Below are positions 21,987-64,000 of a DNA stretch of 64,000 nucleotides, piece by piece. A program made the position numbers and the translations under genes. Position 1 is the stretch's first letter, and each line of letters opens with the position of its first letter. The DNA is from Cliona cf. orientalis (taxonomy: Eukaryota; Porifera; Demospongiae; Clionaida; Clionaidae), in the NCBI GenBank assembly GCA_963930775.1, contig OZ005690.1, positions 6,928,225 through 6,992,224 of the forward strand. The letters run 5' to 3'. Under the pieces are notes generated by a model. That model made no database searches and was not told where the DNA came from. It saw only the letters and a program-made list of their open reading frames with translations.

Positions 21987-22969
21987 CTAATTGTGTGGAA
22001 ATGGAGTGAGCTGAAAGGTTTCAAAACATTTAACTAGATGTTCTCGCATAGCCTGTTGGTGGTAAGTCACTGAACCTGGATTTGCACCACTCGCCAATAG
22101 TGTAGCTGTTTCGATTGCATATACACCACAATCCTTGACACCTAACTGCTTCGGCCCGTCTTCAACCTTGACAGCAGATCCATACAATGAGGAAAGAAGC
22201 TTCTGCGTTGGCAGCTTGATGGATGCATAAAGGGAATCAAACACTTTTGGTGAGCCGATGGGGTATTCTAATGTAGTAGCAACGATCCAGTGGTTTCTTC
22301 TAGTGTGCAAGATCTGTAGAGAAGGCGCAGAACTGGCTAGATTTCTGTGATTGGCCAGCAAGAGGGTTGAGTTAAGTCCAGTGAGTTCTTTGTGATGCTT
22401 TCTTAGAAGAGCCAGAGCAAAATCGATGTGTTTGTCAGATAGAAGATCGCGGAGGTGGTAATACATCTATCAACCATTGTCAATTCTATATTAGCACAGG
22501 TTAGCCATGGAACCGGAGCCTTGGAAAAAGAGTCTGGCATATCCAGTTCATCGACATTGATAACATCCAACTTTCTCTTTTTAGTTGGCTGGCTCACTTC
22601 AGGTTGCTTTTCATGAGAGAGTATGAAAAGCTTCATCACTTTTTTAACATCTTTGGATTCTCCCTTTAACTTTAAAGTACAGGGCATTTCCAGCACTCCT
22701 TGAGGGAGATCAGCAGAGAATCGTCTCAAGCCTGTGATCATGCGATCTATCACGCCTCCTCTACGAAGAGAGAGTGAGCAGGCATCTGATATTCGCCGAG
22801 GGATGTGACCAACAATGTCATCCTGCTTCATGACTGCAACTGCGTATGGGTCACTATCGTTGGAATCTTCTGTTACGCACTGTAGCTCCTTGCCAAGTGT
22901 AGGAGTCCATATACGATCGTAAACGTGATGTCCCCGAACGCAGCTGGCTAATGCAGGTCTCCATATCAT
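21987..22969 (-). pseudogene. HIRAN-domain plus Ulp1-like (C48) protease, one frameshift
   Basis: The N-terminal half (22969-22440) has VRGHHVYDRIWTPTLGKELQ...DPYAVAVMKQDDIVGHIPRR, a HIRAN-like fold signature, ending with a basic KKRKLDV tract. The C-terminal half (22466-21987) has LSDKHIDFALALLRKHH, NHWIVATT (catalytic His), VFDSLYAS (Asp) and QLGVKDCGVYAIETATLLAS (Gln, Cys), the Ulp1/SENP order of active residues. The two frames overlap around 22450, implying a single frameshift or a missed tiny intron. It is convergent with the transposase inside the same terminal repeats. A DNA-end or ssDNA-binding role for HIRAN and de-SUMOylation by the protease are known for those families; their role in transposition is my inference. 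Confidence 0.8.
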
Positions 22970-43849: not shown

Positions 43850-44023
43850 AAATAGCGGTAAACTTTCAAGGCAAAAACCTTCATGAATTTCGTGATTTAA
43901 AATCCACCTGCTCACGTTTCTCCACGGCATTCCACACCAATTAAGTGATTAGTCCGTGAAAATTTTCTCTGCAAGATGTACTGATCCATGATAGTTTTCT
44001 CCCTCGAAAGTTTCCCACTATGC
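43850..44023. mobile_element. MITE sharing ends with the pogo-like element
   Basis: AATAGCGGTAAACTTTC at the left and the inverse TACCGCATAGTGGGAAACTT at the right. The TACCGYATAGYSGGAAA terminus is that of the pogo-like element at 20156-23215 and of the MITE at 54650. Confidence 0.7.
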
Positions 44024-45925
44024 GGTACACTGATGTATTCAAATGTCAAAAACTGAACTGGCCAGATGCTAGATCCTCAAGAGAGCCTCTAAAGAAGTAT
44101 GTCGACTTACAGTTGGCTTTTAGTTTGACTTGTGTACATGTATACCCTTAATTTTGACTACTACCTTCCATTACTTCAGAAATTTTATGTGTATATAGTA
44201 CTAATTAAATTTTGCTACACATCGTTGGTCAAACATCCCAAGTAGTTAATGGTAGAAATTGGTGTGGTAGCTAGTGCTATTGCACTTGTGATAAGTGATT
44301 AAGGTGCACACATGGTCAGTTAACTCAACTATTTCAGGTGGCTGCAGAGCAGTCTGCTTTAACTGAGCACACTGAAGCCTTGCAAATTATATGAGCATTC
44401 ATGTCTGGAAGATATTACTTCCACTGAACAGGCATTTGACATTGATCAAGACAGTGTACAGAGGAGGTGAGACAGGATCAAAAGGTCACTATCGGCTAAT
44501 CACCTGCACCTGCATAATATTTGTATGGAAGTACTGTTTTCACTACTGTACCCTGGCCAGTTATCTAATTGCGAAAGTATCTTTATCGTGTTTTTGGTCG
44601 TATCTATTAGTAGTTTGAGCCCTAGCTGTACCCTTTGTAAACAATTTTCTAGGCTACCATTTGGTCGACCTTTGGACAGTAAGGTAAGCTGCTGTAGTGA
44701 GAATAAGGGCATAGAAAAGCCACCGATTACTTCTATCGCCTGCCTTGGAGAAAGTAGTACCTGTCAGAATACTAAAAGTACAAAAATGCTTGTTACTAGG
44801 GGTTATTGCTGACCTTTTGACCCTGTCAAACTTCCTCTGGGTAGTATATAGGTCTCGGGTACATGAGTATTCTAAACAGGTATGTGTAACATAGCTGCCG
44901 TGTACGTCAGGTGGCAATATTCTCTTTGAATGTGAGTTAAGAGATTGATTAATTTATAGACTGAATAATAACAGATTCTATGGCCTTAATTATATAGAAA
45001 TCAATAGCATGTAAGAGGCATAGAGATGCGGCATTAGGACGATCGAGACACAAATTAGATACAATAGACAACATGGACATAACATCAATAGTGTACATAA
45101 TAAACAGAGTCAGTCAGGCACACGTTACATATGATTATGGCATACGCTCATTACTATCGTGGTTAATACTCTAATGAAAGCTGACCTAATGTGGCCGACA
45201 GATTAGTTTTGTCAGGCACAATAATAGTAAGGTTCTCAGATACCAATCGTAGCTAGGACTGATATGCCTCAGGCATAGTGTGTGTACACAGTTAGCTCAA
45301 CTCACCAACTCCTGCCTGATATTCTGTATGGGCTTTCAGATACCATCTTTTAGATACTATAGTCATCCAAGCACAATAATGTTTAGTTGTGTCAATGCCC
45401 CGTAGAAATATATGATTGAAAAATCAGTTGTCACACTTATCAAATAGCTGCATATTCAGGGTTTCATTTAGGATTTTGTCAAGGGGGGACAAGCATGATC
45501 ATTTCAGAGTTAAAGGGGGGCAGACTATAGTAATATTTCAAGTGTTTTTTCATCCACAAAGAATGACATACAATGTAGTGATCATCAACTGGGGGTCTGG
45601 GGGTATATGCTCCCCCTGGAAAAAAATTTTAACTCTTCAATCTCTGCTACTGTTTGTGGTGGCTTCTGAGCACCCAGTTGGGGAGACGCCTGTCAGTGAT
45701 ATCCACTGGTTCCCCTTAAGTTTAATAGTTGAATGTTGGATGTGTCTCCTACATGTACGTACAGCACGGAGCTTCAGCTAGTTTATGGGTTAAAAATAAA
45801 CAAAACTGCCGCTTTGGACTCTCACCATTCAAACTTTTTACATGCAAGTGTATTGCATGTATCGATGGTGGCTATACTGTCAAGGGAGGGTAGCCAGCTT
45901 TCAAGGAGGGAGGGCTAGTGCTCGC
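44024..45925. other. Stretch without a supportable gene
   Basis: Several gene-like peptides occur (about 44050, 44385-44466, 44649-44682 on plus; 44520-44690 on minus) but none join across splice sites in one frame. A G-tract MITE end (AGGGTTTCATTTAGGATTTT) starts at about 45458. Confidence 0.35.
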
Positions 45926-46281
45926 TAGTCTCATCCCCAGACCCCACCTCCATGGAGGAAAAGGGTCTGCTGAACTTTGGCAGAATCCTTGGGCCTGCGC
46001 TGAGGAATTTCCACGTGCCAATGAGATCGCAGCTCTGCTCAGTCACATGACAAACTTACTGCAACATTGCTGTATAGCTGTATGAGCTATTCAATTTCGC
46101 TGATCAATCAGGTTCAAGGTTTGGTTTACAGCCGGTTGCAATCACATGCAAACACAGCCATAGCAACCAATCAGAACCAAGCTTTGCATGGCCTTGCACG
46201 CCATAGATTGAGAACCAAGGATTCAGCCCAAGTTCATCAGACCCTTTTCCTCCTTGGACGTGGGGTCTGGGGACGGGACTA
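45926..46281. mobile_element. hAT-like MITE upstream of the NLR gene
   Basis: TAGTCTCATCCCCAGACCCC and the inverse TAGTCCCGTCCCCAGACCCC pair for about 60 bp (GGAAAAGGGTCTG..CAAGGATTC). The right flank runs straight into a C run, so the target duplication is not readable. Confidence 0.85.
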
Positions 46282-46469
46282 CGCCCCCCCCCCCCCCCAA
46301 ACTGTGCGTATTACCTTTTATGATGTGGCTACGTACACTCTAAGTGCATGAGAAAAAGATGCGAAAATAACAAGCCTGCCCTAGAGTTCACACCCCACAT
46401 GCACTACACGAGTGTCTCACTCTGTATAACAATTTATCACGGCAAATTGTAAGGATATATAGCGGAGAA

Positions 46470-46760
46470 TAAGGCCAGACCAATTTAATTTGTTGTTGCT
46501 CGGATATTGTGAGGTAAAAATTGGACCGAGCGATTGAAAAAAAAAGGAAAAAAAGCAATTAATTGGGGTGTGGTTATAGACCACAATCTAATTAAGACAG
46601 ACTAATGTGATTATCTAGGACCAAGGAATCAAGATAGAATACAAAAACCACTCTACTGTACATAAGCTCCACCCAACTTAATTAATTTTTTTTTTTTCTG
46701 TTTGCCCAAAAACTGGAGCGAGCGAATCCGTGCAACAACTTATTTAATTGGTCTGGCCTA
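46470..46760. mobile_element. MITE 116 bp upstream of the NLR start codon
   Basis: AAGGCCAGACCAATTTAATT..TGTTGTTGCTCGGAT is mirrored by ATCCGTGCAACAACTTATTTAATTGGTCTGGCCT: about 35-bp ends, 290 bp. It probably supplies part of the NLR upstream region. Confidence 0.88.
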
Positions 46761-46807
46761 ACTTTCAAAACTTGTGTACTTTTGCTGCTGCAGCCTTCAA
46801 CAACATC

Positions 46808-46814
46808 TATAAAG
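46808..46814 (+). promoter_or_regulatory. TATAAAG, possible TATA box of the NLR gene
   Basis: TATAAAG lies 62 nt before the proposed ATG (46876), between the MITE at 46470 and the first exon. Position and sequence fit a core promoter, but no transcript start is visible from sequence alone. Confidence 0.3.
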
Positions 46815-46875
46815 AACAATCATAATTTTGAAGTGGACAGGTTTCTATAGACCACATCAATCTAGTTGCATAACT

Positions 46876-49800
46876 ATGCCCCTCTGGAATAATGAAGAAT
46901 GGAGAGCCCGCATTGGGTCATCATGGTGTGCCATCGGTCGGCCTTTTAAGTGCAAGTCGTCAACCAACCATCAAGGAAATCTATTGGGACATCTGCTGCT
47001 CAGTATAATATCTGCTGAAAGAATCTTGCAGTGTGGATTTCTGATGACTATGTTAGCAATAATTACTGGATATAACCTTCTCACAAGATTGATTAAAAGA
47101 TGCAAAGGGGCTGCAAAAGGTAATTATGGCACTAGTTTATTCAAATGAGCCTTGCCAATGTCAGTTTTTACTGCCCTATAGCTAAAGGATTTTGTTATTC
47201 ATTCATACTTAAATCTGCCAATAAAACTTTCATACTTATATTTAATTAAAGCCTACGTACTACATGGGTGAATCATAGTGCTATACGGATTTTCGCTATA
47301 ATATGCCGTAAAGCTGAAAAAGGCGAGGGTAATATACAGGATGTGGTTAGGGTAATCAGAGTATTGCCCGCTTCCCTAGCTAACTAGACCAGTTATATCC
47401 AAAGTATCTTATGCAGGGCCGTACTCGGGGGGGGGGGGGGGGGGGGGGGGGTGGGCATGCATGGACACACTTGCCACCCTACTAATGCTCATGCAGACAA
47501 TACTAATCATTCTAGTTCAAATTAGTCCTCTTTAGACTTACTAGGTCAAGTGCTGCATGTAAGCAGCTATACACTGGGACCATGCAAGACAAGTTGATCT
47601 TCCTATTAGTGCGCCCACCATCACATGATCGATCAGCTGACAAGCGCTCAATCATACCACATGGATTCCTGCCCTATGAGCCTAACGCCTAGGACTTAGC
47701 CGCATACCCAGGCCCTTTGATCAAGGGGGAGGATCCGAGAAAGGGTCTAGCTTGTATTCCTAGGGTACGAAGCGATGTCATATCAGTGTAGCCTCGTACC
47801 CTAGGCCATGGGAGGAGGGCAAAAAAGCGTACAGTCGTTCGCGGCACCGCAGGTTTCTTGGGGTAATGCACCCAGAATACATTTCTGAGCACACATTAGA
47901 TGGGGTTTTGATGTTTTTGGCTGTATTGACTAGCGACTTAATCGCTAGTTTTATAAGAGGATTCATAATCCGATTAGCTATACTGCCACCAGGATACACG
48001 CCTACACCATACATATAGATCATAGCTAGCTTGTGAATACAATCTGAATCTCTACCATGCACTGAAGAACGATTGTATAAGCCCAGTAAGCCTGTTTGAA
48101 CTAACCCAACCATCTCTAAATTTTAAAGCATCCAATATATTAAAGCTGAGTTTATGTATTAGTGGGTGTTAATTTGTGCAGACTGATGCAGGCTGCAGAT
48201 GTGGTGTACACAGTAGGAGCTCTAGTACAATATTATCATGATAATAATAATGAGGTAATGACTTAGGCTGAACATTTCTATTTGCTGTAGGAAATTTTCA
48301 TCATACTACTACTGTAGCAAAAACTCTTATCACAGTCGTAATCCTACTACAAGCTTTCATGGCAGTCCAAACATCACTGCTTATGCGGTCAGGAGATGTA
48401 GAGAAAAATCCTGGACCTGGTAAGTACATCCTTTGACAATCATTACCTACACTTATTACACTAGGCCAGTCATGTACATGAGCAGAAAGCACGTGGCCTA
48501 CAGAAGGCACTCTCAATGGGCATGACTAACAGAATTTGCCACACTTGTAGGTCTTGCCTAATAATTTGAAGCATAATAAAGCCAAATATTAGCCGATTTC
48601 TACATGTACGTACATAGTCGTGCAGTTGCTCAGTGCCTACGTCCAATTTACATTCCAGCGTTGTCAAGTAGTTGCCACTATGCAGGTTCTCTGCCTTTAA
48701 CCAAAATTGAATAATATACATGTAAGAAAAATAAGAATTTCTCAAGTTCATGGTTCTATAGCTAAACATTCGTAATTAAGGTCATCACCATAAGAAGAAT
48801 TCTAATTTCCAGTCATCATATTGAGCAGATCAAGTTTATGGGGAGGCGTGTGTGGATTTGACCACACCCCTCGGTCATAAGACACTAAAAAGTTTGATTG
48901 ACGTTCAAGAGCCTGACTCAGAGAGCAGCTCTGTGGTAAGACGAGCTTATCTTTTTAATGTTTTATGCGTATCCATGCACAGTATATAGCTATGCCCATG
49001 AGATATAAACTTAGTCTAGTGGTTATATCATGCGCACTCGAGATTGATGCACGACATATTAATTTTATTGCCCTGAGCCCCTGGGCACAAGGCCCTCAGG
49101 CTTCAATGCAATAAATGCCTTACATCCCTCGCATGTATATACATGATTGTGATTGATTTGAGAGAAGCCACTTGTGCAGATTATAATTCACTTAGATGTA
49201 ATATCCATACATTGCAGTAGTGCTGTGAGGTAGGTACATGTACATGTATAAACAAAGATTTTCTGATAACATCTTGACAGTTACATAATCGTGGGTGTGT
49301 ACGGTGCATGAACAATTGGGTGTGTTCGATATACCATTTGTGATATAATGTGTTGCCATACGTCAGCGGCGCACGCCACGGCATAGCTCTAGCCAGCTAT
49401 ATTATCCCTATGTGGATATAGCAGCATTATTTACAGGCCGGCCCCATCCCTTTCAATGAAATCATGCCCACATAATCACTACGAACGTGACAGCAGCAAG
49501 ATGCCACCATTGATTTCGAGCTTTTATGCAAACCGGTATTTTAGTCACATTTGGTAGTTCATGGTAGATACAAGTTTCCTTGGCCTGGAGGAGGTGCGTA
49601 CTTAACTGTCTGGCCAAGGTCTTTCATTGAATCTATCATGATCTATCAAGGTCTTTCATTAAATCTGTCATGATCTTCATTGGCGCCTAGGGTGGTGCCC
49701 AGGCACACTAGGTACCACCCCTGAATCCACCACTGCAGATATGTGCTTGTTATTATTAGAAAGCGATATACCGTCAAATTTCAGTTGCACTACTTAAATG

Positions 49801-52800
49801 ATATACTGCTCCTTGGTTCTCCCAACTCCCAGCAAGGAGCAGTCACTTACAGAGCAGTCACTTAACAAACCTGGAATCCTGATCGCAGTGCATAAAACAG
49901 AGGGGCTGGCAACAACCCTGACCTGGTTCCAGGTGCAATAGCCGGTGGACTGGCATGCTTTTCATATCACAGCCAAGGATATGAAAAGCGTACACGCATC
50001 CACACTGTGAAGGGAGACCTCTATGGACTAGATAGCAGATCATCTTTAGGTCAGACAACATGTGTGGCAGTACTAAAGCTTCTTAAATCCTGTACCTCTC
50101 CCGACCAATGCATTGCTTATGCACATGTTGCATTGTATAACTTGGCATAATATTATTTGCTATCAAATTGGCAATGGCATTGAAGATCTTCAGTACAGAG
50201 CATAAACCGAATGAAGGTGGCTGGTTAATAAAGGGTGGAAGTCTCCTATACTACATTGCATAAAAGATCTAGTGAAGGGGGTTGGCTAGCCACCCTATCC
50301 ACTCCCCCTGGATCAGCCCCTGATCATCTACTTTGACATAATGCAAAGAGTATAAATCTGAAGAAATACCCATTAACCACCCTTCAGCACTCGGAACAAG
50401 GTTGTTGACGAACGAATTGCAATTGAGCTAGCAGAGGGAAGATTGCTGGGACCAGTTCCTACACACCATAGGCCACTGGTTCATACCAGCCCACTGAATC
50501 TAGTCCCCAAAGCACACCAGTCTAACTAGTGGTGCATAATTTGTGACCTCGCATCCCCACTTGGTGGCAGCGTTGGTTGTGCAGGATCGTATGTGGGCAT
50601 GGTTGTGGCTGTAACCTATTTTAAGGCCCATTAGGAGGCTCTTGTGGATATAAGATACCAAGGCTTGGTTAGGGTGTCTATTGAGGAATGCTGCGAGCTC
50701 CTCCAACTTACCGTATTTCCTCGAATAAAGGCCGCCCTCGATTAGTAGCCGCACTTGGAGCTTTGCGAAAGAAATAGTAGCCGCACGCATGTGCGAACAC
50801 AATTTTTGTCTGTGAGTCTGAAGTGACTCTTCCTGATACTATCTAAGAGTGCCGTACTGGTGGATCATTGTATAGCCATTTTGTTTTATACCTTTGCATC
50901 TACTGACCATCAGGGACAAGCTACAAGACCATAGATAGAGACTGTATGTACCAAGCTTAGTTTGCAACCTAATTGAGAGCAGGTGATACATGTAATGCAC
51001 ATGACTAATATTTTTGAGTATTTGTAATGTATCACAGACACTGATTGTTAAGTGATTGTGCTTGCAGCAACAGTGCGCTTTTCAAACATTGCACTCAAGT
51101 AAGAGTACGTGTAGAAGGCGTGATGTGCAAAATGATAGAGGGAAAATGAACAGAGCTTGCTTCTCAAAAGTCTTTACTACTAGCTTCCAATTTCCAAGTC
51201 ACAATCAATCATAGATTGTATAGTCCATTCAGAGGCAGATTCAGGATTTCTTGAAGGGGATTCTGTTATACTCTTGTGCGCAAAATTGTTAGGTGCCGCA
51301 CCCACTTTGGAGCAAAACCTCTCCCATTTCTGTTGTTTCCCCTATTTTCTTGTTTAGCATCAACAACTTTAGTTAATAAATAACGTACACAAGCATTCAA
51401 GGCTCAAGTCATACATGTATAACATCAGTGTTACTCTCAGGACACTTATTACCTTTATTATAAAGACTGTATTAACTGTTGTATTTATTCAATACTACTC
51501 TTCCTCTCCCACATTATTATACTATATACAACGAAAAATATTTTTCAGACGATCATTTTTCTTATATAGTCCATGTCATTACATGAGGGCATGGATACAA
51601 GCGGCCTGCTAAACAAGTGCTGGCGCTAGCCACCAAGCCTCGAGCAAAGCGAGAGGCGAGGTCTGTTCTTTATCATACCTGTCAGTAGTCCAGTAGCAAC
51701 GTTCGAGCAGAGTGAGAACGTCGCCATTGCACACTTTAATAGTTGGAGCCAGAGCCGTTGCTTGCTATGAGGGGAGTGGCCTCGAGTTCTGCAACCGCTT
51801 CAATCTGCGCATGCGCACGGTACTAATGCCCATGCAGGATACTGTTTGTGCATGAATTACGTCTCTATGTTTTGTTGCATGCTAGCCACATTATCCCATG
51901 ATTGTGACATTAAACATACTTGTGATCAAACTTAATAATTATTTACATGTACATGGATGATTTTTAATTTTGTGATATTTATTATATATTCTCCGATTTT
52001 ATCATTGAATCTAGACTACAGCTCTGTTGATAATGACACCATTTTAGGTGAGTAAGATATTTTTATTATATTTAATATGTTTAATATCTGTACAGTTCAA
52101 CCTCGATTATTGATTATTTGAACCCCCAATTATCCCAAATTCGAGGTGCAACACGTGCAGGGTCAAAGTACAACTAGTGACCACCCGGACATTTGCGCAT
52201 GCACAGTAAACCTACGTCACATGGTTGCCTTGCAAGAACCAGCTGCTGCACGACTGCCAAGTCGAGTTCAAATGCTCAATAAAATAAATGCAAGATAAGT
52301 ATTCTATTTATCGAGGACTAGATTATAATCATTGAAATACCATGTTTATGATAGTAGAATACAAGCTAAAAGAATAATTACGATTTATCATGATTTTCTG
52401 GTAAAGGTCGTCACACTCTACATTATGATGTGCCGTATCCTTGCGAAAGAGGGCCCACTACGGAATGTCGGCCCACCCCCATACTTTGGGCTCTATTTCC
52501 TGCTAAGGTCTAGTGTTTACTCAAATATGCACCCATGTGTAGCTAGCCTTGAAAGCGCAGCTCAAATGCATGAAATGGCTAGACTGAACTTCGAATAGTC
52601 TATGTAAGATCGATAAGTAACGTGCTAAATAGCCGTAAAACTAAGCCTAGCTAACTTGATGCCATGTACGTTTCAGCACAAATAAACTATCATACATGGC
52701 TGGCGATCGTAGCCACGCCCACTGAATACAGCTACACTCAACGATACACGGTGAAGTATCGTGGCCGCCCTTGCTCTGGATTGATAACCGTGCTTGAATA

Positions 52801-55800
52801 AGGCTGAAATCAATAGTAGCCGCTGGTACTATTCAAATTATGAAGCTAGCGTGGGTAACTTACCTGGGCGCTCTTTCGAGCATAAACGCGATATAGATAC
52901 CTCGAATATCGGCCCATCCCCCAATCTTGGCCCAACGTAAGGTGCACCGCCCATGGGCCCTCTTTCGCGAGGGTACGGTATTATGAGTCCTAGAACGTGA
53001 ATTTTCTTGTGCTAATTAGATCTTGTGTCTTATTTGCATAAACACAGTACTCGATATCTGTGACATGCACACGTTCTTGCGTGCAAAATTGAATTCGTTG
53101 ATATGGCTTGGGCATGGTCAACATCATTCCAACTTCTTGCTTATTCAAACTTTCGATTTCTTCTCATGGCCAAAGGGGTTTGGATAATCAAGGTTGGACT
53201 GTATAATATGTATGGCATGTGATTTTTAGTTGTGCTAACTCTATTTGTGGTCAGCTTAGCAGTAACCAAAGTCCCCAAGAATGTTGCTCAACACGGTCAC
53301 CCATGAGGGCAGCAATTAGTGGGCCCTCTTTCACGAGGGTATGGTAAATTTTTAGCAGAATCTTTGCCACACTCGTTCTCTGTTCTTGCTCTAATTTGGC
53401 TTTCAATGTCATGACTGCTCTCGGCATGTATATACTGCTATATATGTGGTCAATTATCGCTGAAACCTCTGAGCTTAATTAAAACCATGGCAATTACTTC
53501 TATTGAGTGTCTAGTCTAACAAAATTATAGTGGCATATCCAAAAATTATCTGTATTTTGCTTAATATGTAGGTGAAGATGACTTCAGTGAAGTATATGGA
53601 GAAGTATTCAAACTTACAGGAAACTACTATACGCTTGGTATAGTTCTTGGGTTACCAGTGCAAGAGCTAAGCAAGATTAAGAAAGGGTTTCCCAGTGATT
53701 TAGAACAGGCCTTCACTGAAATGTTGTTAGTTTGGCTGAGGCATAGCTACAATATTGATAAACATGGTCCTCCAACATGGCGGAGACTAGTGGAAGCAGT
53801 TGACAATGATGCTGGTGGAAGTAACCCTGCACTAGCAAAGAAGATAGCATCTAATCATCCAGCAGGTACGCTTTATAATAATAATTATGATTAGCTTAGA
53901 GATCATGGTTACCAACTATAGTGGCTCTATTCAAAGAAACACTCTCTATGTTATATATTGATTTATAGCTGTCGACTCTACATGTGGAGTATTACTGGCA
54001 CAATCGATGCGTGCTCATTCTGCCCACACCAGTAATAAGCAGGGCTACGAGTGTAGCAGGATGATGAGATAATTATCATACTAATGTTGTACTTTCCTAA
54101 AGACGAAAATTTAAAAAAGCACAATAATAATTATTATGGTCCCTTGATTTTCTCATAACCTATTGCATTATTCAGCTCTTAATGAGGCAATATGATCAAT
54201 TAAATACAGACTCATATTAGTTATATGAGTTACTACCAGTGAGATCAGGGGAAATTCCCAAGTACATATACGTATGCAAACTAGAACTATTATAATATTA
54301 TCTACATACATGTACATGACACTGTTGTTCTTCAGTTGTAGAGCCAAGTACAAACAACATTTTGCCATCTAAGATGCAAGTAGTACCTTCAAGGGATCGC
54401 AAAAATGAAAAATCATTGGAAGAAACAGATGAACCCAATGGTATATAGTCAAAGTTTGTCAAAATCTAAGATTGTAAAATTGGTGATTACTGACTTGAGG
54501 GTGATGCATAATAAATTTTAATCCTTTATACATCACTCTCAAGTTATTACGTCATTAATAAGGGAGTTTATGAACTGGTATAATTATTAGTAGGTCTGTA
54601 GTAATATTGTTTAGCAAGACATGGACATTAACTTTGGAAATCAGAGGATTACCATATAACGGGTAAATTTGGCGAAATGGCTCTCCATTGGTATTGGAAA
54701 AGTTTAATTTTTCACAATTTGAAAGCTTGCCGCCCTAGGTATGCGTGCATTAATTAAGTGAGTTTTTCTTTGGCAATCTATACCGAATTCACCAAGTCGC
54801 CAAATTAAAACCTCACCAAAGTTTCCCGCTATGTGGTATGTATATTAAGGCACCATAATATTTCAGGTGCAGAGGTGAATGTACCCAACGTTGGTCGTAG
54901 ACGCACCCTTCCATTAGCAGCACAAAAAGTACGAGGACGAACTCTGTCTACAGTATGTGAATATTCAAGTAAGTATTAAATTTTGGTTGACTACCCTTTA
55001 TTATACACTGCTCCTGGTATTTTGTACATTTGGGGCTTGCACAAGCTAATACAGTGGAATTTCTCATAACGGACCCTCCCAGGAGCGGCCACCCACTATA
55101 TTAAAACTGACAACCGCTATGAATTTGCCATAGACTTAGTACATTTCGAATCTCCGAGGAGCGGACAACCTCCCAATTCACTATAATGGACGGATTATTC
55201 AGACCTGATTGAACAATTTAATAGCGGGTGGCCAGGAAGCCACACCCCTTTTTGTAGCCAGTGACGTAATTGCCGACGCCATGGATGGCCGGCCAGCCTG
55301 GGTACTGCACACGTGATACCGCTGGACATTACGCAATCCTGTGTATTGTACATTGAATTCTTGTTACTCTTTTGACTCTCTGGCTAAGCTTGTGACATAA
55401 TAATAAGCATAAGCTTGGATCCATGTGAGCATCTTGCAGTAATGTTGGACTTGCAATAGCTACCTCTCAGTGCTTGCTGACTGAGGGTTTTAGACTATAG
55501 TGCTTCATTAATTGTATTGGTCCTCATCCTCATACGCTTTGTGGCTTGTGCTCCAGTATTTAATAGTGTTAATATCGTAAAGAATATCAATGGCTTAACA
55601 TAATGCATGCATATTCTTGTACTCAGCAGGATATGTGCACCATTGTAACAATTATCGTAAATCTAAAGCAGCCTCTACCTGTAGTAATATAATTATGTAT
55701 TTTAGACCTCAGAGGATATGTGATCAGTGATTTACAGTATGAATTGATTCTATAGATGATTGGGAATCAATTGTCCACAAATTTCGTGACACACTGGCTA

Positions 55801-58800
55801 TGTACTACATAAGACAAGTTGATGATCGTGCCTGGCCACCTGTAAAGGTAACAAATTTCATAAATCTGGCACTTATCAAAGATAGATGTGGCTGGCGAAA
55901 AACTATTCGTGGAGCTGCTGATAAGACAGTTAGTGAAGGAGATACTGCTTCTTATAGTACTATGTTCAATGACATAGAGGCTGAGAGGTTTATTCTTTTT
56001 GAGGGGCGGCCAGGTAGTGGTAAGACCACTCTCATGAATAAGATCAGTCGCGACTGGGCATGCAGAGAAATTTTGACATCTTACCTACTTTTACACATTC
56101 CCCTTCGAAGACTCAACATTAAAGGAGACCGCAATATTCAAACAATTCTTCAAGTAGCTTATCCTGGTCTATCCGAAAGTGATTTAGAGCAGCTGGCAGT
56201 TTATATTGAACAAAACCAGGGTGAAGGTGTTGTATTTGCATTTGATGGGCTCGATGAATATGCTCCCCACTTTTACGATCCAATAACAAAATTAAAAGAA
56301 GAGCTACCTTACGGCAGTAAAAAGCCCCTCAGGAGACAGCTGACAGACTTCTTTGCAAGTAGTAAGAAACAGGCGATTGATGATGTTTTTCAAATTGTGT
56401 ATGGAAAGAGCTTTACTAAAGCATTAGTAATCGTCACTTCTCGGCCTTCTGCATGTACACAATTTCGTGAGTATGCCAAGAAAAGGATTGAAGTCCTTGG
56501 ATTCTTGAAAGCACAGATTACTGAATATCTTCTCCACTATTTCGATAAGGATGAACATAAAGCTAAGCAATTATCACTGCACTTGGAACAACGTCCAAAC
56601 TTATTAAATATGGCATACCTTCCTCTTCATTGTGCTATGCTAGCATTCCTTTATGAAGAAGACACACTCCTACCTGAAACAGAAACTGAGTTTTACAAGT
56701 TCTTCACGATATCGACATTATTGAGAGACATGCGCAAACGGCAAGGTGGGGTTGAATTTTCACTGAAGTCTTTTGATTGTCTTCCTATGAGTGATAAAGC
56801 CATCTTTGATAAAATTTGTCAGCTGGCATTCACTGCTACAGTGAAATCTAAGCAGGTCTTTTCAGCTGATGATGTAAAGAGCATATCAACTTTCACTGAT
56901 GATGGAGGTTCTCTTGGATTAGTTGTAATTGATCACTGTTTCACAAGATACGGACTGGATGACACCTATACATTTCTACATCTGACATTCCAAGAGTACC
57001 TGGCAGCAGTTCACATTACTGGATTGACTGTTGCTCAACAGCTGGAGCTCATTAAGAAACATCGTAATGATAAACATCTTTCTGTAGTTTGGAAGTTTCT
57101 GTGTGGACAGATTAACTTCTCCAATCCTAATGCAATGGATATTTTCAAAAGCGTGCTTGACACAGCTGCAGCTAAAGATAAACTCATTCAGTTACAATGT
57201 TGTCATGAGTCTCAGAACCCACTGGTATGTAAACACGTGATTACTGCTTCCAAAGCACAGCTCAAGTTCAGATCTACCAATTTTACTCCATCAGACTGTA
57301 CCGCTATTGGATATGCTGTCCATGAATGTGACGTTGAGCCTGTACAACTAGTATTTCAAGACTGCAACTTAAGTTATGAAGGAGCTACAGCACTTTTGAA
57401 GAAGATCGAAGACCACCCTGTGTCACTTACACTCAAGTAAGATTCATTAATATTATTTATCTCATTCTAAGTACGGACGTAAAATTCATCATTATATTCA
57501 TGTTATAGGAAAGGACCAGCTGTAAAGTCTTTATTGCAGGCTTTAGCAGAATGTACCACTCCCGGCTTACATTACTTAATGTGAGTTTACATTTCTTACT
57601 CGATAGCTAAATTTATGTTATGGGAGGGAATCCCCATTGATGAACAAGATAGTATGCTACCACGGTGATCACTATTATACTTACCACATAGACTGGATGT
57701 TCAAATTACATGTATGGATAAAATTTTACTCCTTAAGTTTGAGCATCTGATCATAGGGTCTGATCCAGTTCTCTGAATGTATACTGAGCAATTATCTCGA
57801 GTTTTGGTGACTAATAGGTGTTGTATATAATCGAACAATTAGTTGCTAGCATGACCATACATTATGTCCTGTAGGTTTTTAACTCCTCAATTCCCTCCAA
57901 GCAATGTAGTCTAGAGGGAACTTTATATAAAGCATTGAAAATTCACACAGATAAACTGACCTGAAAATTTGAAATTCTCACAGATGGTGATCATGTACAT
58001 GTAGTTTGATGTCCATTTATAAACAGGTCATGATTTTGATTACCACTTTGTCTTGCAGACTTAGTGGTAACAACATTGATTGTGAAGATGCTGAACTACT
58101 TGGGAAAGGCCTCAAAAGCTGTACCAACATCATCAAGTTGGAGTAAGTTATGTTTTCGGGTAAATGCTTGGCCTGATTAATAGACCTTTTCGTTATAGGC
58201 CCTAAGAAATACAGGTTACGTTTTTTGTATAATTATGACATACATTTCTATGGATCATATAATTAGAGCCGGCTATTCAGGCATAATAATAATAATATTG
58301 TAATGTTTGCAAGTTCCAATGCGTAGCTATAGCCCATGAACGACTCCAATATTTAGTCCAATATTTTATGTAGTCATCCAACAAACAAGTAGAACAGTAG
58401 CTTTTTATCAAGATTCAGACCCAGAAGAACTCCAATCTTACCTCTTGACTTTAAACTCATAGATCTTCCAAATTTAAACATTGATGGGTTTTTTGTGGAC
58501 TATCAAATCTATACATCTACTAGTTAACATAATACTATGCTCTTAAATGGCACACTGCATGTAGTGCGCCAACTGCCCTGTATTCCCTCATTATTAGAGC
58601 CAGACCGATTAAGGTAGCTATGATGCCCTTTCGGCTTAAGATTATAGGTGTGGCTGTTGGGTGGAGCCAGCTCGTGCCGTCTTGGTGTAAGCAGTGATCC
58701 ACATACAATGTACCCAAGCTTAATTACCATTCCAAGCTAATTAGCACCTATTTTATCCTTGGGTAAAATCCCTGCCCACGCCACCACAGCTTACACCACT

Positions 58801-61800
58801 TCTTCCCTTTTGAAACTTCTCCACCCCAGTGTAGGTATAAACCGATGCTTGATGATGACAATGTGAATGATATTATGATTATTTTATTGACTACCGTCTG
58901 AAATGCTGTGTATAGTGTTTCCTAGGCGGCTGGACAGTGGCGGATATAGGGGGGTTTCGGAAGTTTCGACAGAACCCCCCTTTTGGGCCGCACCTAGTTC
59001 TAAGAAGTACTGATGATAGGCTAAATGAAATCCCCTCTCTGGCTAAAGAACTAAGAAAACTGCTGCTATGGCTCACCTTAGCATGCTTTAGCAGAAAATT
59101 CGTTCAAAAATCCATCGATTGGACTGCTTGGGCTGGTAGTTATTCTCAAAACGATAAAAAAATCGGAAAAGTGGGCGTGGCTTCTAAAATTTTGCACGCG
59201 CTTCACGGCACAAGAGTATAACAGAACCCCCTTCAACAAATCCTAGATCCACCACTACTGGAGTAGGACACCAAGTGTTTCCGTGGTGTCTTGATGTAGA
59301 CCTGATAGATGCTACTTTTCCACCTACCCAACATCTTGCTGATTCCCCATTTAGCAGCAGTTGTGGCAGCCCTGATGCAGAAGCTGTACCCAGAATAAGC
59401 AGTGCATGCAGTCCACTCCCGTTAAGGAGAGAGCCTTGCTCCTTGACCTTGTCCACAACTTCATGCGAGTGAGAGGGGTCCCGTTCTTAATTTTGAAAAA
59501 CAGACCACTACCCTGCCCTCTTGCCACCATAAAATGCAGCACAACCATTACCAGGCAAAGGGTGTTTCCTGTCCTCCCAACGTAGATATGTACCCCCACC
59601 ATGAATTGATCTGCCTTTGAAGCTTTTAGATGCACTTGAAGGATGCGCGGAGTGTGCATGCCACTGCTATATCATTGAAGCTGAGGTGAGCCCCCTCATC
59701 ATAGGATGTGGCAGAGGGGATAGTGACCACATAAAACCGAAAAAGCATAGTGAGGCTGTAGCAAAAAGCATTTGGCCATCAAACTTGCTCAACCAGCTTG
59801 ACCATACCACCTTGCGTTTAGCCAAGTGATTTGGAGTTTTCGGCAGATGTTCCCTCTTCTTTGGGGTCCTTTGATTGAACCATTTTAATCCTCTTCAAGA
59901 CTTGCTCTAGTCTTGCCATGGTATGAATATGAGGATCCCCATATCCCTCTGCTAGTCTCGCATTGCACTCCGCAGCGTTTAGTTCTTTCAGGATAAACAC
60001 GCGGGGGGGGGGGGGGGGGGGGGGGGGGGGTGGGGTCTGGCACACTGCCTATGCCCATTTGGATCCATGATTGCGTAGCATTTTGACACATGACGTTCAA
60101 CTGCATGCAAAATCTTGCTTGAAAATGGTAGCCACAGAAGCACAAAGAAACAACTTGAACAAGCGACACTATTGTTGTTCAGGTGCTGGTATAGGGAGAT
60201 AGAACCTTATCGTAACAGAACTGTAGTGCTCCACAGCTCTATCCAACATTTGGACAGAATATCAGATGGTCCAGCAGAGACTGGGGTACTGATCCTGGTT
60301 GGCTTGGGGATGTGGCGGAATAGGGGGAGATTTTCCTGAGATAGTGAATATGCTTGTATATTGTGAGTTCTTTTGATGTGGGTAGCTGTGATAAATGATA
60401 GACATCTAGCCAAGTGAATCACTTCCTGGTTCTTTGACGCCCCGTGGTTGACAATGCTGATGACTGCTAAATTGTCGCACTGGGCTAGTACCGTAGCCCC
60501 CCGCCACAGTGGTCCCATATGGCTCCTGCTGTCACAATTGGGATGAGCTCTTTTACTGTGATAATATGGTAATCTGCGTTTAAGCCAGACCACAGAAGCA
60601 TGAACCAGTTTGAACCGTAGTGAGCTCCACATCCCCAGTTGCCTGATGCATCGAATGTGAGCACTGCTGCTGGAGAAGTCATGTTAGGGAGATGCATCAT
60701 GGCATTCAATGTCTGATCTAGCTTCTGAGTTGAAGCGATAATCGTCTGGTAGGCCATTAATTTTGGCAACCTCGGTGGATACTTTGCACTGAGAGTTGTG
60801 ATGTAAATTGAGAAACACTGCATCCAGGTGGCCAGACCTGGAATATTCTTCCTTGTCTGCAACAGCTCGGCCGGCCGCCTGGACCACAATAGCATGGCCC
60901 TCGAGCGATTGTGGCATAGGCCTTCCCTTGACCTTCACTGGAGGCACCTCCGAGAAGTCGATGTTCTCATTGGCCAGCACTCTTACAATCAGCTTCTTGA
61001 GAAGGGCTGGCAATCCTGTCCCTATAGTCACCGGGGGCTGTGAGCTGCTCCTCACCTCGTTGCTTTCAAGCTTGCTCATGAGGGCGTCAATCTGCACAGC
61101 CAGATTCTTAGGCTTAGTATCATTATGCAGGTCCTTGCCCTTGTCCTCGCTGCCATAGCTTAGGACCCCTGCATCCCGGAGAGAGTCTTCCTCTGGAGGG
61201 TCAAGTAGTGTTCCTGCATATTTGGCCATGTGCAAACAATTATATTATTAACATCAGCCACTGCATATATGATACCTCTTTACAACTTGTACCCTCAACA
61301 TGCTCACAGGGTCTAGTTGCCAGCACCTGCTGCCCCATTTTTTGCTAATGGGCTGCATTTGCATCAAGATAACTTTCTAGGGGCCACTGCAACCCCCCCC
61401 CCCCCCCCCCCAGCAACTCTGCCGAGCAATTTATACCCAGGCAAGTGTCCATTCTCCATGTGAATATCACACCCGAGCAGGTGGAGAAGGGATTATTGGA
61501 CTTGTTCAAATAGTTCTGGCAGATACTCACCTTTGCCTGTGCTAGAGGACCCACTGCCCTCGTTGAGTCACTTTTTGGGTGGCCTCTCCTGAAGTCTAGC
61601 CACAACTCTTTCGATGATCACATCCAAAGACTGCTGTACAGGCTCATCTTCTTCCTCGTCGGATATCTTGCCTGGCGATTAGAGCGGATAGAGAAAGAAG
61701 AGCTGCCTGGTTCATCTGCTGTTGAGAGCCGCATGACTAGAACTGACCAATGTGCATGTCTAAACCAAACACACTGTCTCCTCCCTCTTAATTGTCTGCG

Positions 61801-63293
61801 CATCGGTCTATAATACTAGTGACATGCAGGGCCTGTTTGGGGCGAGCCTGAGCTGAGCCTCTGAAAGTCTCTGTCAGTAGCTGCTACTCGAAAACTTTAA
61901 TAAAGCCATAGCACGATAAATCTTGAAGACTACTGGTACAGATCCAAGCAAACAATGACAGACAGTCTCATAGTGCCGTGTAGGCCTGTAGGTCTACAGC
62001 TGCATGATAGTCCCCTTCCATCCTTCAGTACCGACAGTCAATACAAAGTTTTACCAGAGTCATCAGTGAGCAGTACGTCTAGTCTATCTTTATCGTATTC
62101 TTAGCTGGTCCTTGCGCTATTGAGCTGATGACAGGCTCTATCTCGCTCAGAGTGTCCTCCTTTGGAGCCTTCTGCTTGCTTCTGTACGGCGCACGATGCG
62201 CTCTCTCTCTTTCGCGCCTTCTTTGAAGCCTTTTCTCTCTCTTCGCTTCAGCAGATTGAGTGTTAGTAGAACTCATACTAAAACAGTAGCAAAGAACAAG
62301 TATAGTCGTAATAAAGTGGCCTTTGAAATAATTCAATGTGTCAAAAAAACACGTGACTATGCTGACGCAAATGTTTTCATGCGGCCTTTTGAAATATACC
62401 GCGCAGCGCTGTACAATATCTATGGCGGTTTGCGCGTGACGGACGTACCATACATAACAATAATAATAATAATAATAATATATGGATTGCGAGCGTTCAC
62501 CTCGTCTATGTGGGGCTCGCTCAGGCTCGCTCAGGCTCGCTCAGGCTTGCCCCAATTAACTCACATTAGACTATTTTGCTGTAGATGACATTAACTCTTA
62601 CTTTTGATTTGTATAGTCTTAGTGATAGTAAGATTGATGCTGATGGAGCTCAGGAACTTGCTTATGGTCTTGAATTCTGCACTGAATTACAGGAACTTGA
62701 GTAAGTATTGTATGAATATTAGCTGTGTCTGTTATCGCTCTGTGCTTGATATCCAAACACTACTGTAACATGTACAAGAGTATCTCTATTTGCGTTGATT
62801 TTTGTAGCATGTTCATGAAGTTAAATCATCTATAGTATCTCGTGCTTGTATTCATGTTGCTCTTTGTATAATTGCAGTCTTAGTAAAAACTATCTTACTG
62901 ATGAAGGAATTATGGCCTTATCAAATGCTATCGGAGAAATGGAGAGCCTTCAAAAATTGAAGTAAGATATGAAGCAATTATACGTGTGTAATAGCAAATG
63001 GCCTAATCTTTTGAGCAAAGGACTACTTAATCGTCCGCTCTTAATTCTTTATAGCCTTAGTAAGAATGACATTAGTAGTAAAGGAGTGGAGCCTCTCACT
63101 GAAGGAATAGAGAAATTAAAAGCTCTTCAGCAATTGAGGTAAAACATGCAGTTACTGTACCAATTATTATTTCTGAAATTTCATAAAATTAATGATATTT
63201 TACCAATAGCCTCAACAAGAATTTAATTGATGATGAAGGAGCTATAGCACTCGTTGAAATGATTGAGGAAACGACATGCCTTCAATGCTTAGA
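46876..63293 (+). CDS. 2A-leader DEATH-NACHT-LRR receptor (NLR), 13 exons seen, 3' end beyond window
   Basis: Exons: 46876-47119, 48291-48419, 52015-52047, 53572-53865, 54336-54440, 54867-54968, 55756-57436, 57509-57580, 58059-58142, 62617-62700, 62878-62961, 63055-63138, 63210-63293. Every junction is GT-AG and all phases agree, giving at least 1026 codons without a stop. Order: leader 1-81; hydrophobic segment and 2A motif 82-124; short linker; DEATH 136-233; two basic/polar linkers 234-302; NACHT exon 303-862; LRRs from about 863. NLRs of this layout sense danger signals in the cytosol and signal through DEATH-domain adaptors. The last visible exon ends with donor GTGAGT, so further LRRs follow. 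Introns carry transposons; no exon is interrupted. The weakest link is exon 1, supported by phase fit and a hydrophobic, basic leader. Confidence 0.93.
47427..47451. repeat. Run of 25 G in NLR intron 1
   Basis: An uninterrupted G homopolymer preceded by GGGCCGTACTC. It is one of at least four runs of 24-28 G in the window (7325, 29894, 47427, 60003). Confidence 0.95.
47778..48113 (-). CDS. Hypothetical antisense ORF in NLR intron 1
   Basis: An open frame of 111 codons (MVGLVQTGLLGLYNRSSVHG...) with moderately protein-like composition. No domain is recognised and there are no splice partners. Part overlaps a hAT-MITE-like GGGTCTAG stretch, so it is probably a relic or chance. Confidence 0.15.
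   Translation of the reverse strand: MVGLVQTGLLGLYNRSSVHGRDSDCIHKLAMIYMYGVGVYPGGSIANRIMNPLIKLAIKSLVNTAKNIKTPSNVCSEMYSGCITPRNLRCRERLYAFLPSSHGLGYEATLI
48291..48419 (+). other. NLR exon 2: hydrophobic segment plus 2A ribosome-skipping motif
   Basis: The phase 1-1 exon encodes VAKTLITVVILLQAFMAVQT, then SLLMRSGDVEKNPGP. D-V-E-K-N-P-G/P (residues 117-124 of the protein) matches the D(V/I)ExNPG/P consensus at every position, and the upstream LLMRSG is of the usual kind. Known 2A sequences stop peptide-bond formation between the last Gly and Pro; the downstream chain would start with Pro124, then DYSSVDNDTIL. An alternative internal ATG at 48359 would give a 20-residue leader. Published sea-urchin NLRs carry N-terminal 2A motifs that double as signal sequences; the same use here is inference. 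Confidence 0.92.
48840..49147. repeat. Inverted copy of the 5830-6010 repeat with palindrome, NLR intron 2
   Basis: TGTGTGGATTTGACCACACC, GACTCAGAGAGCAGCTCTGT and TATGCCCATGAGATATAAAC match the reverse of 5850-6010. The ATAAATGCC palindrome follows at about 49022-49147. With 51524-51857 it may be one element split by later insertions. Confidence 0.75.
49148..50393. other. Intronic DNA, nothing recognised
   Basis: Within NLR intron 2. A local direct repeat GTCTTTCATTGAATCT/GTCTTTCATTAAATCT lies at about 49620-49665. No gene. Confidence 0.4.
50394..50710. mobile_element. DIRS-type reverse-transcriptase fragments, head-to-head rearranged
   Basis: The plus strand (50394-50525) encodes ELAEGRLLGPVPTHHRPLVH, then TSPLNLVPKAHQ: the start of a DIRS-type RT. 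The minus strand (about 50710-50540) encodes ELAAFLNRHPNQALVSYIHK, then SLLMGLKIGY, the region that normally precedes it. The two pieces are contiguous parts of one protein but now point at each other, so one was inverted. Confidence 0.65.
50711..51523. repeat. MITE end CCGTATTTCCTCGAATAAAG and non-coding intron DNA
   Basis: TTACCGTATTTCCTCGAATA at 50710 is a typical terminus of a widespread MITE class. The repeated GTAGCCGCAC units follow at about 50738 and 50770. I did not find its right end. Confidence 0.45.
51524..51857. repeat. Inverted copy of the 5248-5720 repeat, NLR intron 2
   Basis: CGAAAAATATTTTTCAGACG..ACTATATAAG, GAGCAAAGCGAGAGGCGAGG and CATGCAGGATACTGTTTGTG correspond in reverse to 5250-5715. 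Non-coding. Confidence 0.75.
52091..53203. mobile_element. MITE in NLR intron 3 with nested MITE
   Basis: TACAGTTCAACCTCGATTAT and the inverse TACAGTCCAACCTTGATTAT bound about 1.1 kb with TA borders. A second element at 52431-52980 (TGCCGTATCCTTGCGAAAGA / TACCGTACCCTCGCGAAAGA reversed) sits inside. A solo end of the latter (GGGCCCTCTTTCACGAGGGT) is at about 53319. Confidence 0.85.
53572..53865 (+). other. NLR exon 4: DEATH domain
   Basis: A phase 1-1 exon of 98 residues. It reads EDDFSEVYGEVFKLTGNYYT, LGIVLGLPVQELSKIKKGFP, SDLEQAFTEMLLVWLRHSYN, PPTWRRLVEAVDNDAGGSNP and ALAKKIASNHPA. The six-helix spacing, the central LLxxWL and the PxTWxxLVxAV signature are diagnostic. It would bind DEATH-domain adaptors by homotypic contact. 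Confidence 0.93.
54650..54838. mobile_element. MITE in NLR intron 5, pogo-like ends
   Basis: TACCATATAACGGGTAAATT and the inverse TACCACATAGCGGGAAACTT. The terminus is close to that of the pogo-like element at 20156. Confidence 0.75.
55050..55235. mobile_element. Tigger/pogo-type MITE remnant in NLR intron 6
   Basis: TACAGTGGAATTTCTCATAA..GGACCCTCC..AGCGG is the CAGTGGAA-type end also seen at 27242. An inner mirrored part (GAGGAGCGGACAACCTCCCA) follows. The right terminus is missing. Confidence 0.6.
55756..57436 (+). other. NLR exon 7: NACHT NTPase
   Basis: The 1681-bp exon, entered in phase 1, adds 14 codons (NDWESIVHKFRDTL) before the first Met of the frame, so that Met at 55800 is not a start. 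Walker A GRPGSGKTT is at residues 386-394, Walker B FAFDGLDE with D466, sensor TSRP at 530-533, then a winged-helix region ending LHLTFQEYLAAVHI. All the key NTP-binding residues are present, so the NTPase should be able to switch states. The last codons (PVSLTLK) begin the first LRR. Confidence 0.95.
58935..59257. mobile_element. MITE with CAGTGGCGGAT ends in NLR intron 9
   Basis: CAGTGGCGGATATAGGGGGG at the left and the inverse CAGTAGTGGTGGATCTAGG at the right. ACAGAACCCCC occurs near both ends. Same class as 29878-30544. Confidence 0.7.
59260..61800 (-). mobile_element. DIRS-type retroelement remnant in NLR intron 9, RT missing
   Basis: Read on minus: a gag-like part (about 61620-60720) with ENIDFSEVPPVKVKGRPMPQ and SLEGHAIVVQAAGRAVADKE; RNase H at 60700-60210 with LTFDASGNWGCGAHYGSNWF, VKELIPIVTAGAIWDH and AQCDNLAVISIVNHGASKNQ; then tyrosine recombinase pieces (about 59960-59270) with IKMVQSKDPK, YDEGAHLSFN, ILQVHLKASKADQF, HIYVGRTGNTLCLV and a frameshifted HSFRIGAAT-like end. 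The reverse transcriptase that should lie between gag and RNase H is absent. A 28-G run interrupts it at 60003-60030 and a 19-C run at 61393-61411. Many frameshifts; not functional. Confidence 0.82.
62079..62336 (-). CDS. Hypothetical Arg-rich ORF in NLR intron 9
   Basis: From the internal Met the frame reads MSSTNTQSAEAKREKRLQRR, then RERERAHRAPYRS: a strongly basic helix like those in some transposon-linked proteins. No second exon or domain. Probably a transposon relic. Confidence 0.25.
   Translation of the reverse strand: MNYFKGHFITTILVLCYCFSMSSTNTQSAEAKREKRLQRRRERERAHRAPYRSKQKAPKEDTLSEIEPVISSIAQGPAKNTIKID
62458..62560. repeat. (AAT)n and CTCGCTCAGG tandem
   Basis: An AAT microsatellite (about 62458-62480) is followed by three direct copies of GGCTCGCTCA and one GGCTTGCCCC variant (62513-62552), just 60 bp before the splice acceptor of LRR exon 10. 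GGGGCTTGCTCAGGCTC at 27026 is related. Confidence 0.8.
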
Positions 63294-64000
63294 GTGAGTT
63301 AACAATCAGATCCTTCTGCATGCTTACAATTAACATAAAACTATCAGTGTGATACGATGTGCATACTATAACATACTATAGTGTAGAGTCCATGCAGCTA
63401 ATTGACATTTTAGTGGTTATACTAACATGCTGTTATAATAGCCATAGGAGCAAAAGTTCGTATTATTAATGCTCATAATAATAATCTAGTAAGCAAAAGT
63501 TTGTTATTATTGCTCATATTTAGTCTTACACAATGTAGACATTTCAGTGGTGCAATAATGCTTGCCCCAGTCTTTTGCATTGATTTTGTGCTGTATCTAA
63601 TTGGAGTTGTACTACAGTGCTGGGTGCATCAACGTGTTCATCTAGCAAAACACACGCCAGGTGTAGTCTAACTGCCAATTAGGACTACCCTACATCTCTA
63701 CACATACCACATATCCATGCTTTAGCTCCTGATACACATTTGATTTATCAATTTCATAGTCAATAAAATTTATAGCCAACATCATTAAAAGAGAGTTTCC
63801 AACATACGTATCATCTTGAAAGCATTTGGCTACAACCACTTCGCTGCTCACAGTCCATCGCAGTCCAGACAAGTAGCAGCTACTGTTATCTGCTAAAAGA
63901 AGAGGCTAATTTTCTATTATACAAAGTTTGCGCCTAAATTTGTCTATATGAGGTATAAATAGATCAGGTATATCACCTCAAGAGTCCATACAGCCCAGTA
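63294..64000. other. NLR intron 13 start, no further exon seen
   Basis: From donor GTGAGT at 63294 to the window end no LSxN-type exon with phase-2 borders is visible. Contains a local repeat of ATTATTA..GCTCATA segments (about 63455-63520). Confidence 0.5.

What the first reader, a model, noticed from the sequence alone, without database searches (positions are those of the whole stretch)
46876..53865. NLR immune receptor with an N-terminal 2A ribosome-skipping leader
Seen: a perfect D-V-E-K-N-P-G/P motif on its own phase 1-1 exon, preceded by a hydrophobic stretch and an 81-residue leader exon, and followed in frame by DEATH and NACHT exons. Known: 2A motifs cause translational recoding at Gly/Pro, and N-terminal 2A sequences that double as signal peptides were described for sea-urchin NLRs. 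Inference: this sponge-type gene makes two products, a free leader peptide plus a cytosolic receptor starting at Pro124, or an unskipped leader-tethered receptor sent to membranes.
Basis: partly seen in the sequence, partly recalled or inferred. Interest (0 to 1): 0.93.

Follow-up and report, generated by a model that had tools for sequence, protein, structure and literature searches.

The report
Ribosome-skipping leader on immune receptors
This gene looks like a NOD-like immune receptor whose first two exons end in a perfect 2A "ribosome-skipping" signal; the same leader stands in front of dozens of receptor-type genes in this genome, so one message probably makes a small hydrophobic leader protein and a separate receptor.

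Summary
Exon 1 (46876-47119) and exon 2 (48291-48419) splice in phase 1 into a 124-residue leader ending GDVEKNPGP; a 33-nt exon, a DEATH-like exon and a NACHT exon follow in frame. It is neither chance nor unique. The genome has 153 D-x-E-x-N-P-G-P sites with V/I/L/M/F at x (152 V or I) against 0 for the reversed pattern. Leader exon 1 has 47 copies; 45 have an intact 2A within 9 kb. At least 81 of 148 listed 2A sites have a DEATH-like exon downstream on the same strand, 0 on the opposite strand; others include retroelements. The leader's first 25 codons are constrained (median dN/dS 0.15), and relatives occur in public ORFs. N-terminal 2A on NLRs is known from sea urchin (Roulston 2016). Different here: a two-exon leader with its own conserved block, an exon cassette shared by several architectures, tandem 2A sites, natural losses. 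Skipping and targeting are inferred; no RNA or protein was tested. Against: the gene's own twin (NACHT 96%) shows no leader or 2A in the sequence read.

The parts
46876..47119 (+). Exon 1: leader, MPLWNNEEWRARIGSSWCAIGRPFK block plus a hydrophobic stretch
   Evidence: Open frame and phase-1 donor; 47 copies in the genome counting itself; 13 relatives in public ORFs
48291..48419 (+). Exon 2: hydrophobic stretch ending in the 2A motif GDVEKNPGP, phase 1-1
   Evidence: motif at 48395-48417; 57 relatives, 56 with the strict motif; acceptor and donor
52015..52047 (+). Exon 3: 33-nt exon, DYSSVDNDTIL
   Evidence: Phase 1-1; similar exon read by eye in L036 and L037; present in both close relatives L070 and L071
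53572..53865 (+). Exon 4: DEATH-like domain
   Evidence: label is weak for this exon alone
54336..54440 (+). Exon 5: linker, phase 1-1
   Evidence: Open frame and splice sites
54867..54968 (+). Exon 6: linker, phase 1-1
   Evidence: Open frame and splice sites
55756..57440 (+). Exon 7: NACHT exon; frame open to a stop at 57438-57440, candidate donor at 57437
   Evidence: PF05729 E 9.5e-21
58060..63310 (+). Four candidate LRR-like exons (near 58060, 62879, 63056, 63211)
   Evidence: Pattern search; LRR_6 below cut-off for three, none for the first

Best explanation
A DEATH-NACHT receptor gene of the NLR kind that carries an exon-encoded StopGo/2A leader cassette. Shown here: the anatomy, the recurrence, the splice context and the conservation. 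Inferred: ribosomes on the spliced mRNA skip the Gly123-Pro124 bond, releasing a 123-residue hydrophobic leader and then making a separate receptor that starts at Pro124 and stays in the cytosol. Where skipping fails, a minority product stays fused to the leader and goes to the ER or another membrane, as shown for a sea-urchin NLR 2A. Because the leader's first 25 residues are under constraint of their own, the freed leader is probably functional, not only an address label. That the motif is a selected, working 2A is the firmer part (about 0.8); dual targeting is less sure (about 0.4).
For: 153 motif sites against 0 reversed, 152 of them V or I. 45 of 47 leader exons have an intact 2A within 9 kb. 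70 of 148 2A sites have a listed DEATH relative within 6 kb downstream on the same strand, 5 upstream, 0 opposite; 81 of 148 with further loci. Phase-1 GT(A/G) donor within 16 nt after the motif in 48 of 50 distinct non-repeat sites. Constraint on the leader block. Motif kept in 13 of 14 single-exon leader ORFs of public assemblies. Sea-urchin precedent with about 80% recoding in vitro.
Against: No RNA, protein or translation data. The window gene's closest relatives (DEATH 90-91%, NACHT 96%) show exon 3 but no leader or 2A in 9.2 kb read upstream. Only 16 of 78 scored NACHT relatives have a 2A within 12 kb. Acceptor scores of the 2A exon fit the phase in only 8 of 16 leader loci. The window's own exon-1 hydrophobic stretch is the weakest of 16 (1.53, under the usual 1.6).
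Confidence: 0.7

Rival explanations
1. The leader is an ordinary anchor or signal region and the 2A is weak or inactive in this animal, so the gene makes mainly a membrane-tethered receptor.
For: Two hydrophobic stretches; a natural D-to-N motif variant persists in an otherwise similar gene; engagement with the translocon can inhibit a 2A in artificial polyproteins (PMC2978324); membrane-bound sponge NLRs have been proposed (PMC12909245, passages).
Against: The motif is kept far better than its surroundings and in 13 of 14 ORFs of public assemblies; an inactive motif would be expected to decay. The motif comparison within the genome is partly built in, because many loci were found by the motif.
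Confidence: 0.15
2. Leader and 2A exons are not usually part of the receptor mRNA; the receptor starts from another promoter downstream, and the 2A exons belong to short separate transcripts.
For: The twin keeps exon 3, DEATH and NACHT without a leader or 2A in the sequence read. Here the 2A lies 5.2 kb from the DEATH exon, at the long end of the list.
Against: Leader, 2A and DEATH in this order on one strand in 41 of 47 leader loci; phase-1 donors right after the motif; 12 of the 14 NACHT loci most like this one have the 2A and 13 the leader.
Confidence: 0.1
3. The cassette is the 5' end of a 2A-bearing non-LTR retroelement, inserted or recently captured.
For: Such elements exist here: L040 (2A, PHD finger E 1.5e-7, reverse transcriptase E 3.8e-37) and L052 (2A, PHD finger).
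Against: The 2A frame here ends five residues after NPGP, at a splice donor, with no long element ORF behind it. The EWRARIG leader was not seen in the L040 or L052 frames printed. No relative of the single-exon leader alignment in viral or prokaryotic contigs. An ancient capture is not excluded.
Confidence: 0.05

Closest known systems
Sea-urchin NLR N-terminal 2A sequences, SpNLR2A (Roulston et al. 2016, PMC4981915; abstract, four sections and passages seen)
   Same: 2A consensus D(V/I)ExNPGP at the N-terminus of DEATH-NACHT receptors in a large family (85 of 241 there); hydrophobic run before the motif.
   Different: There the 2A is a 26-residue stretch that is itself the predicted signal sequence (12 of 14). 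Here it ends a 123-residue, two-exon leader with a conserved hydrophilic block. That text has no mention of sponge, Amphimedon, Porifera or exon.
Viral and biotechnological 2A/StopGo elements (PMC12846837, passages; PMC11512398, passages)
   Same: Core motif and the expected Gly/Pro event.
   Different: Cellular receptor genes, motif at the end of an exon. Activity not tested here.
2A-bearing non-LTR retroelements, such as L040 and L052 in this genome
   Same: 2A near the start of the frame with a hydrophobic run before it.
   Different: Those continue as one long ORF with PHD finger and, in L040, reverse transcriptase; the receptor 2A exons stop at a phase-1 donor.
Sponge DEATH-NACHT-LRR receptors, NLRD (Dysidea avara, PMC12909245; passages)
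   Same: DEATH plus NACHT order and gene expansion; transmembrane segments reported in some NLRs.
   Different: No mention of signal peptide or ribosome in that text; '2A' was too short to search.

Membership tests
2A/StopGo recoding element | D(V/I)ExNPGP motif in an open frame | tested here: met
   GDVEKNPGP in frame
2A/StopGo recoding element | Hydrophobic run just upstream of the motif | tested here: met
   19-residue hydropathy maximum 2.09 in the window; 14 of 17 distinct 2A segments reach 1.6
2A/StopGo recoding element | Gly-Pro bond is skipped during translation | not testable with these tools
   Needs a translation assay
Sea-urchin type N-terminal 2A NLR | 2A in the N-terminal region of a DEATH-NACHT receptor | tested here: met
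   Gene model of 863 residues; DEATH label weak
Sea-urchin type N-terminal 2A NLR | Short (about 26 aa) 2A at the very N-terminus that is itself the signal sequence | tested here: not met
   Motif ends at residue 124, behind a separate leader exon; signal-peptide prediction not available
NLR (bona fide: NACHT plus LRR) | NACHT domain | tested here: met
   PF05729 E 9.5e-21
NLR (bona fide: NACHT plus LRR) | LRR repeats | tested here: inconclusive
   LRR_6 at E 0.05-0.14 for three short exons, none for a fourth
NLR (bona fide: NACHT plus LRR) | DEATH-fold N-terminal domain | tested here: inconclusive
   E 0.11 alone, 5 of 6 relatives match; Foldseek E 0.35
2A-bearing non-LTR retroelement | 2A followed by a long element ORF (PHD, endonuclease, reverse transcriptase) | tested here: not met
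   Frame ends five residues after NPGP at a donor, unlike L040 and L052

The most novel reading that the evidence does not exclude
The leader is a translocon-gated switch with a product of its own. When Gly123 is at the peptidyl-transferase centre, the exon-2 hydrophobic run (about residues 88-113) lies in the exit tunnel and the exon-1 run (about 37-73) at or in the translocon. Engagement with the ER would suppress skipping and give an anchored receptor; no engagement would allow skipping and give a cytosolic receptor plus a free leader that acts in trans. One genome would use this switch in dozens of receptors, and the tandem-2A genes would make three products.
Probability: 0.15. Interest if true: 0.85.

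Novelty: new variant of a known kind. Interest (0 to 1): 0.64.

Why it matters
If active, it shows that recoding at the front of immune receptors is not a sea-urchin oddity, and adds a conserved leader protein that a plain signal peptide would not need. It may bear on reports of membrane-bound sponge NLRs (PMC12909245, passages). It also offers a natural panel for testing what a cellular 2A does: paralogs with an intact motif, a D-to-N motif, two motifs in tandem, and none.

Tried and rejected
Rejected: chance motif; element ORF at this place. Led nowhere: viral contigs (95 pattern matches, 0 relatives) and prokaryotic genome contigs (83 pattern matches, 0 relatives), both asked with the single-exon leader alignment A2, not with exon 1; Rfam over 44000-64000, 0 matches. 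Not tested: which organism this is.

Literature: the listings showed no title on 2A in sponge NLRs; only the top rows of long result lists were seen (20 of 173; 15 of 2,971; 15 of 1,099), and most subscription papers are not held, so this is no proof of absence. Odon et al. 2013 is not held.

Limits: 100 of 105 DVE sites were listed, so 148 of 153 sites were used. DEATH relatives: 150 scored of 510 candidates. NACHT relatives: 78 scored of 477 candidates. The 32 loci were chosen by me to cover the clusters, not at random. In one search I put 8 loci in the repeat class by hand; the other 50 sites include some with no DEATH hit. dN/dS kept only pairs with dS between 0.1 and 2; pairs share ancestry. 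Splice matrices and the hydropathy scale were recalled.
Full report
OBSERVATION. Exons 1 (46876-47119) and 2 (48291-48419) give a 124-residue stretch ending GDVEKNPGP, and five further exons, all joined in phase 1, extend the frame to 863 residues with no stop and with AG/GT at every internal junction. The window has one match, and none in 100 shuffles. NACHT is clear (E 9.5e-21). DEATH is supported mainly by the family: exon 4 alone E 0.11, 5 of 6 relatives match, best 4.5e-6; PDB profile hits to PIDD and FADD at E 0.01-0.04; model pLDDT 76; Foldseek top hits RAIDD and FADD at E 0.35 and worse. LRR-like exons match below cut-off or not at all.

A GENOME-WIDE MODULE. The genome (216.8 Mb, 149 contigs, unnamed) has 105 DVExNPGP sites and 0 for the reversed pattern. 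With V, I, L, M or F allowed there are 153, again 0 for the control: 105 V, 47 I, 1 L. Exon 1 has 47 copies counting itself, each aligned from its Met. Exon 2 has 57, of which 56 coincide with a strict motif; some of these are retroelement-like sites. The exception reads GNVEENPGP. Of the 47 leader exons, 45 have an intact 2A within 9 kb, 43 a listed DEATH exon within 12 kb, 41 both. The two without an intact 2A are L020 (the D-to-N case) and L018, in whose 1.5 kb of flank no 2A exon was seen.

WHAT FOLLOWS THE 2A. With 148 listed 2A sites and 150 scored DEATH relatives, 70 sites have one within 6 kb downstream on the same strand (64 within 3 kb), 5 upstream (0 within 3 kb), 0 on the opposite strand. 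A small HMM made from six such exons found 11 more in fetched loci, 81 of 148 in all. Of the 32 further loci that I chose, 18 have a DEATH match downstream on the motif's strand and 14 have none in the stretch held. Among these 14, L040 is a retroelement (PHD E 1.5e-7, reverse transcriptase E 3.8e-37) and L052 has a PHD finger; L062, L064 and L067 look alike by eye, L058 and L059 are repeats of one another, L056 has no Pfam match, and L038, L045, L053, L054, L063 and L066 stay undecided. Architectures read: L035, leader, 2A, three Death matches (E 5.7e-4 to 0.039, below cut-off) and NACHT (E 4.7e-16); L037, leader, 2A, DEATH-like exon, NACHT (E 2e-16) and weak LRR_6; L036, two 2A exons (DVERNPGP, then DVEMNPGP), several DEATH-like exons (three with weak Pfam matches), SPRY (E 3.5e-12) and a Roc match below cut-off.

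SPLICE CONTEXT. After the motif a GT(A/G) donor lies within 16 nt in phase 1 in 48 of 50 distinct non-repeat sites, in phase 0 in 0, in phase 2 in 10. In 8 repeat-type sites the counts are 2, 1 and 2. So in receptor-type genes the motif sits at the 3' end of an exon. At the end of exon 1 the best donor is in phase 1 in 15 of 16 distinct leader loci. The best acceptor of the 2A exon is in the right phase in 8 of 16, the window among them with a strong score (my counts from the rows).

SELECTION. Among 18 distinct leader exons 11 of the first 25 positions never vary. Median dN/dS (Nei-Gojobori) is 0.15 for that block (130 pairs), 0.23 for the last nine codons with the motif (160 pairs) and 0.53 for the 23 codons before them (137 pairs). 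Pairs are not independent. The motif value is partly built in, since many loci were found by the motif; the leader value rests on loci that match the leader and does not depend on the motif.

HYDROPATHY. The 19-residue maximum reaches 1.6 in the exon-1 stretch of 15 of 16 distinct leaders, the window's (1.53) being the exception, and in 14 of 17 distinct 2A stretches, the window's being 2.09.

OTHER ASSEMBLIES. Exon 1 has 13 relatives among public ORFs, the best 80% identical; all 13 have EWRARIG or, once, EWKARIG. The related single-exon leader of L046 has 14, one identical; 13 of 14 keep NPGP, one reads NPRP. Equal contig lengths suggest that some of these leaders share a contig with a NACHT ORF (7,197 bases: P0137 and P0089; 319,019 bases: P0122 and P0008), but contig identity was not checked. 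The hosts are unnamed.

AGAINST. The nearest relatives of the window gene are DEATH exons at C2:7025084 and C2:7039554 (90 and 91%) and a NACHT exon at C2:7047050 (96%). Upstream of both DEATH exons exon 3 is present, but no leader or 2A exon was recognised in the 9.2 kb read, and neither the leader search nor the motif lists show another one of this kind on C2 (C2:1359903 is far away, a different leader). These copies lost the cassette, start elsewhere, or are spliced from elsewhere. Of the 14 NACHT loci most like the window's, 12 have a 2A and 13 the leader; of the next 64, 4 have a 2A within 12 kb, one doubtful at 11 kb. The cassette follows one clade and a few others; it is not general to NLRs.

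MECHANISM. Roulston et al. showed that a sea-urchin NLR 2A recodes (about 80%, qualitative, cell-free) and sends the unskipped product to the secretory path. De Felipe et al. showed that the sequence upstream of a 2A, when translocated, can inhibit the reaction in artificial polyproteins; they give 30-40 residues in the tunnel and 65-70 in the ribosome-translocon complex (abstract and passages). In this leader the exon-2 run would be in the tunnel at the decision point and the exon-1 run just beyond. In a 26-residue form nothing would have emerged. This geometry is my inference; it makes the translocon-gated reading testable.

COMPARISON. It works like the sea-urchin system and shares its main feature, a 2A at the front of a DEATH-NACHT receptor. 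It does not meet the feature of a short 2A that is itself the signal sequence. Hence a new variant of a known kind. Roulston et al. call polyphyletic origin of such short sequences feasible, even probable; common descent was not tested here.

Noticed in passing
L036 126-148 and 496-518 (C10:760125, C10:760495); also C10:773803 and C10:774007: Two 2A motifs about 350 bases apart in one leader region, each followed by a phase-1 donor in L036; the gene may make three products, or choose between the exons. A mirror pair lies about 13 kb away on the other strand.
   Followed up: partly
L020 (C1:1619299, minus strand): A leader gene whose motif reads GNVEENPGP instead of GDVEENPGP, a natural change in the 2A core.
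   Followed up: partly
L070 and L071 (C2:7016200-7025400, C2:7030700-7039900): Close relatives of the window gene with exon 3 and DEATH exon but no leader or 2A seen upstream; how they start is unexplained.
   Followed up: partly
L001-L003, L008, L041, L051, L057, L068: Other, longer leaders without the EWRARIG block in the frame printed, also ending in a 2A with a DEATH-like exon downstream: several unrelated-looking leaders share the 2A-DEATH arrangement.
   Followed up: partly
L040, L052 (also L056, L058, L059, L062, L064, L067): 2A motifs at the front of retroelement or repeat frames in the same genome; PHD finger and reverse transcriptase confirmed in L040, PHD finger in L052.
   Followed up: partly
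window 9909-10655 (-), 18671-19255 (+), 20902-21537 (+), 21990-22466 (-): Transposon-like ORFs: P-element HTH, DUF4371 and Ulp1 protease below their cut-offs, DDE_1 above it.
   Followed up: no
window 46286-46300 and 47429-47454: Runs of C and of G flanking exon 1 on the + strand.
   Followed up: no
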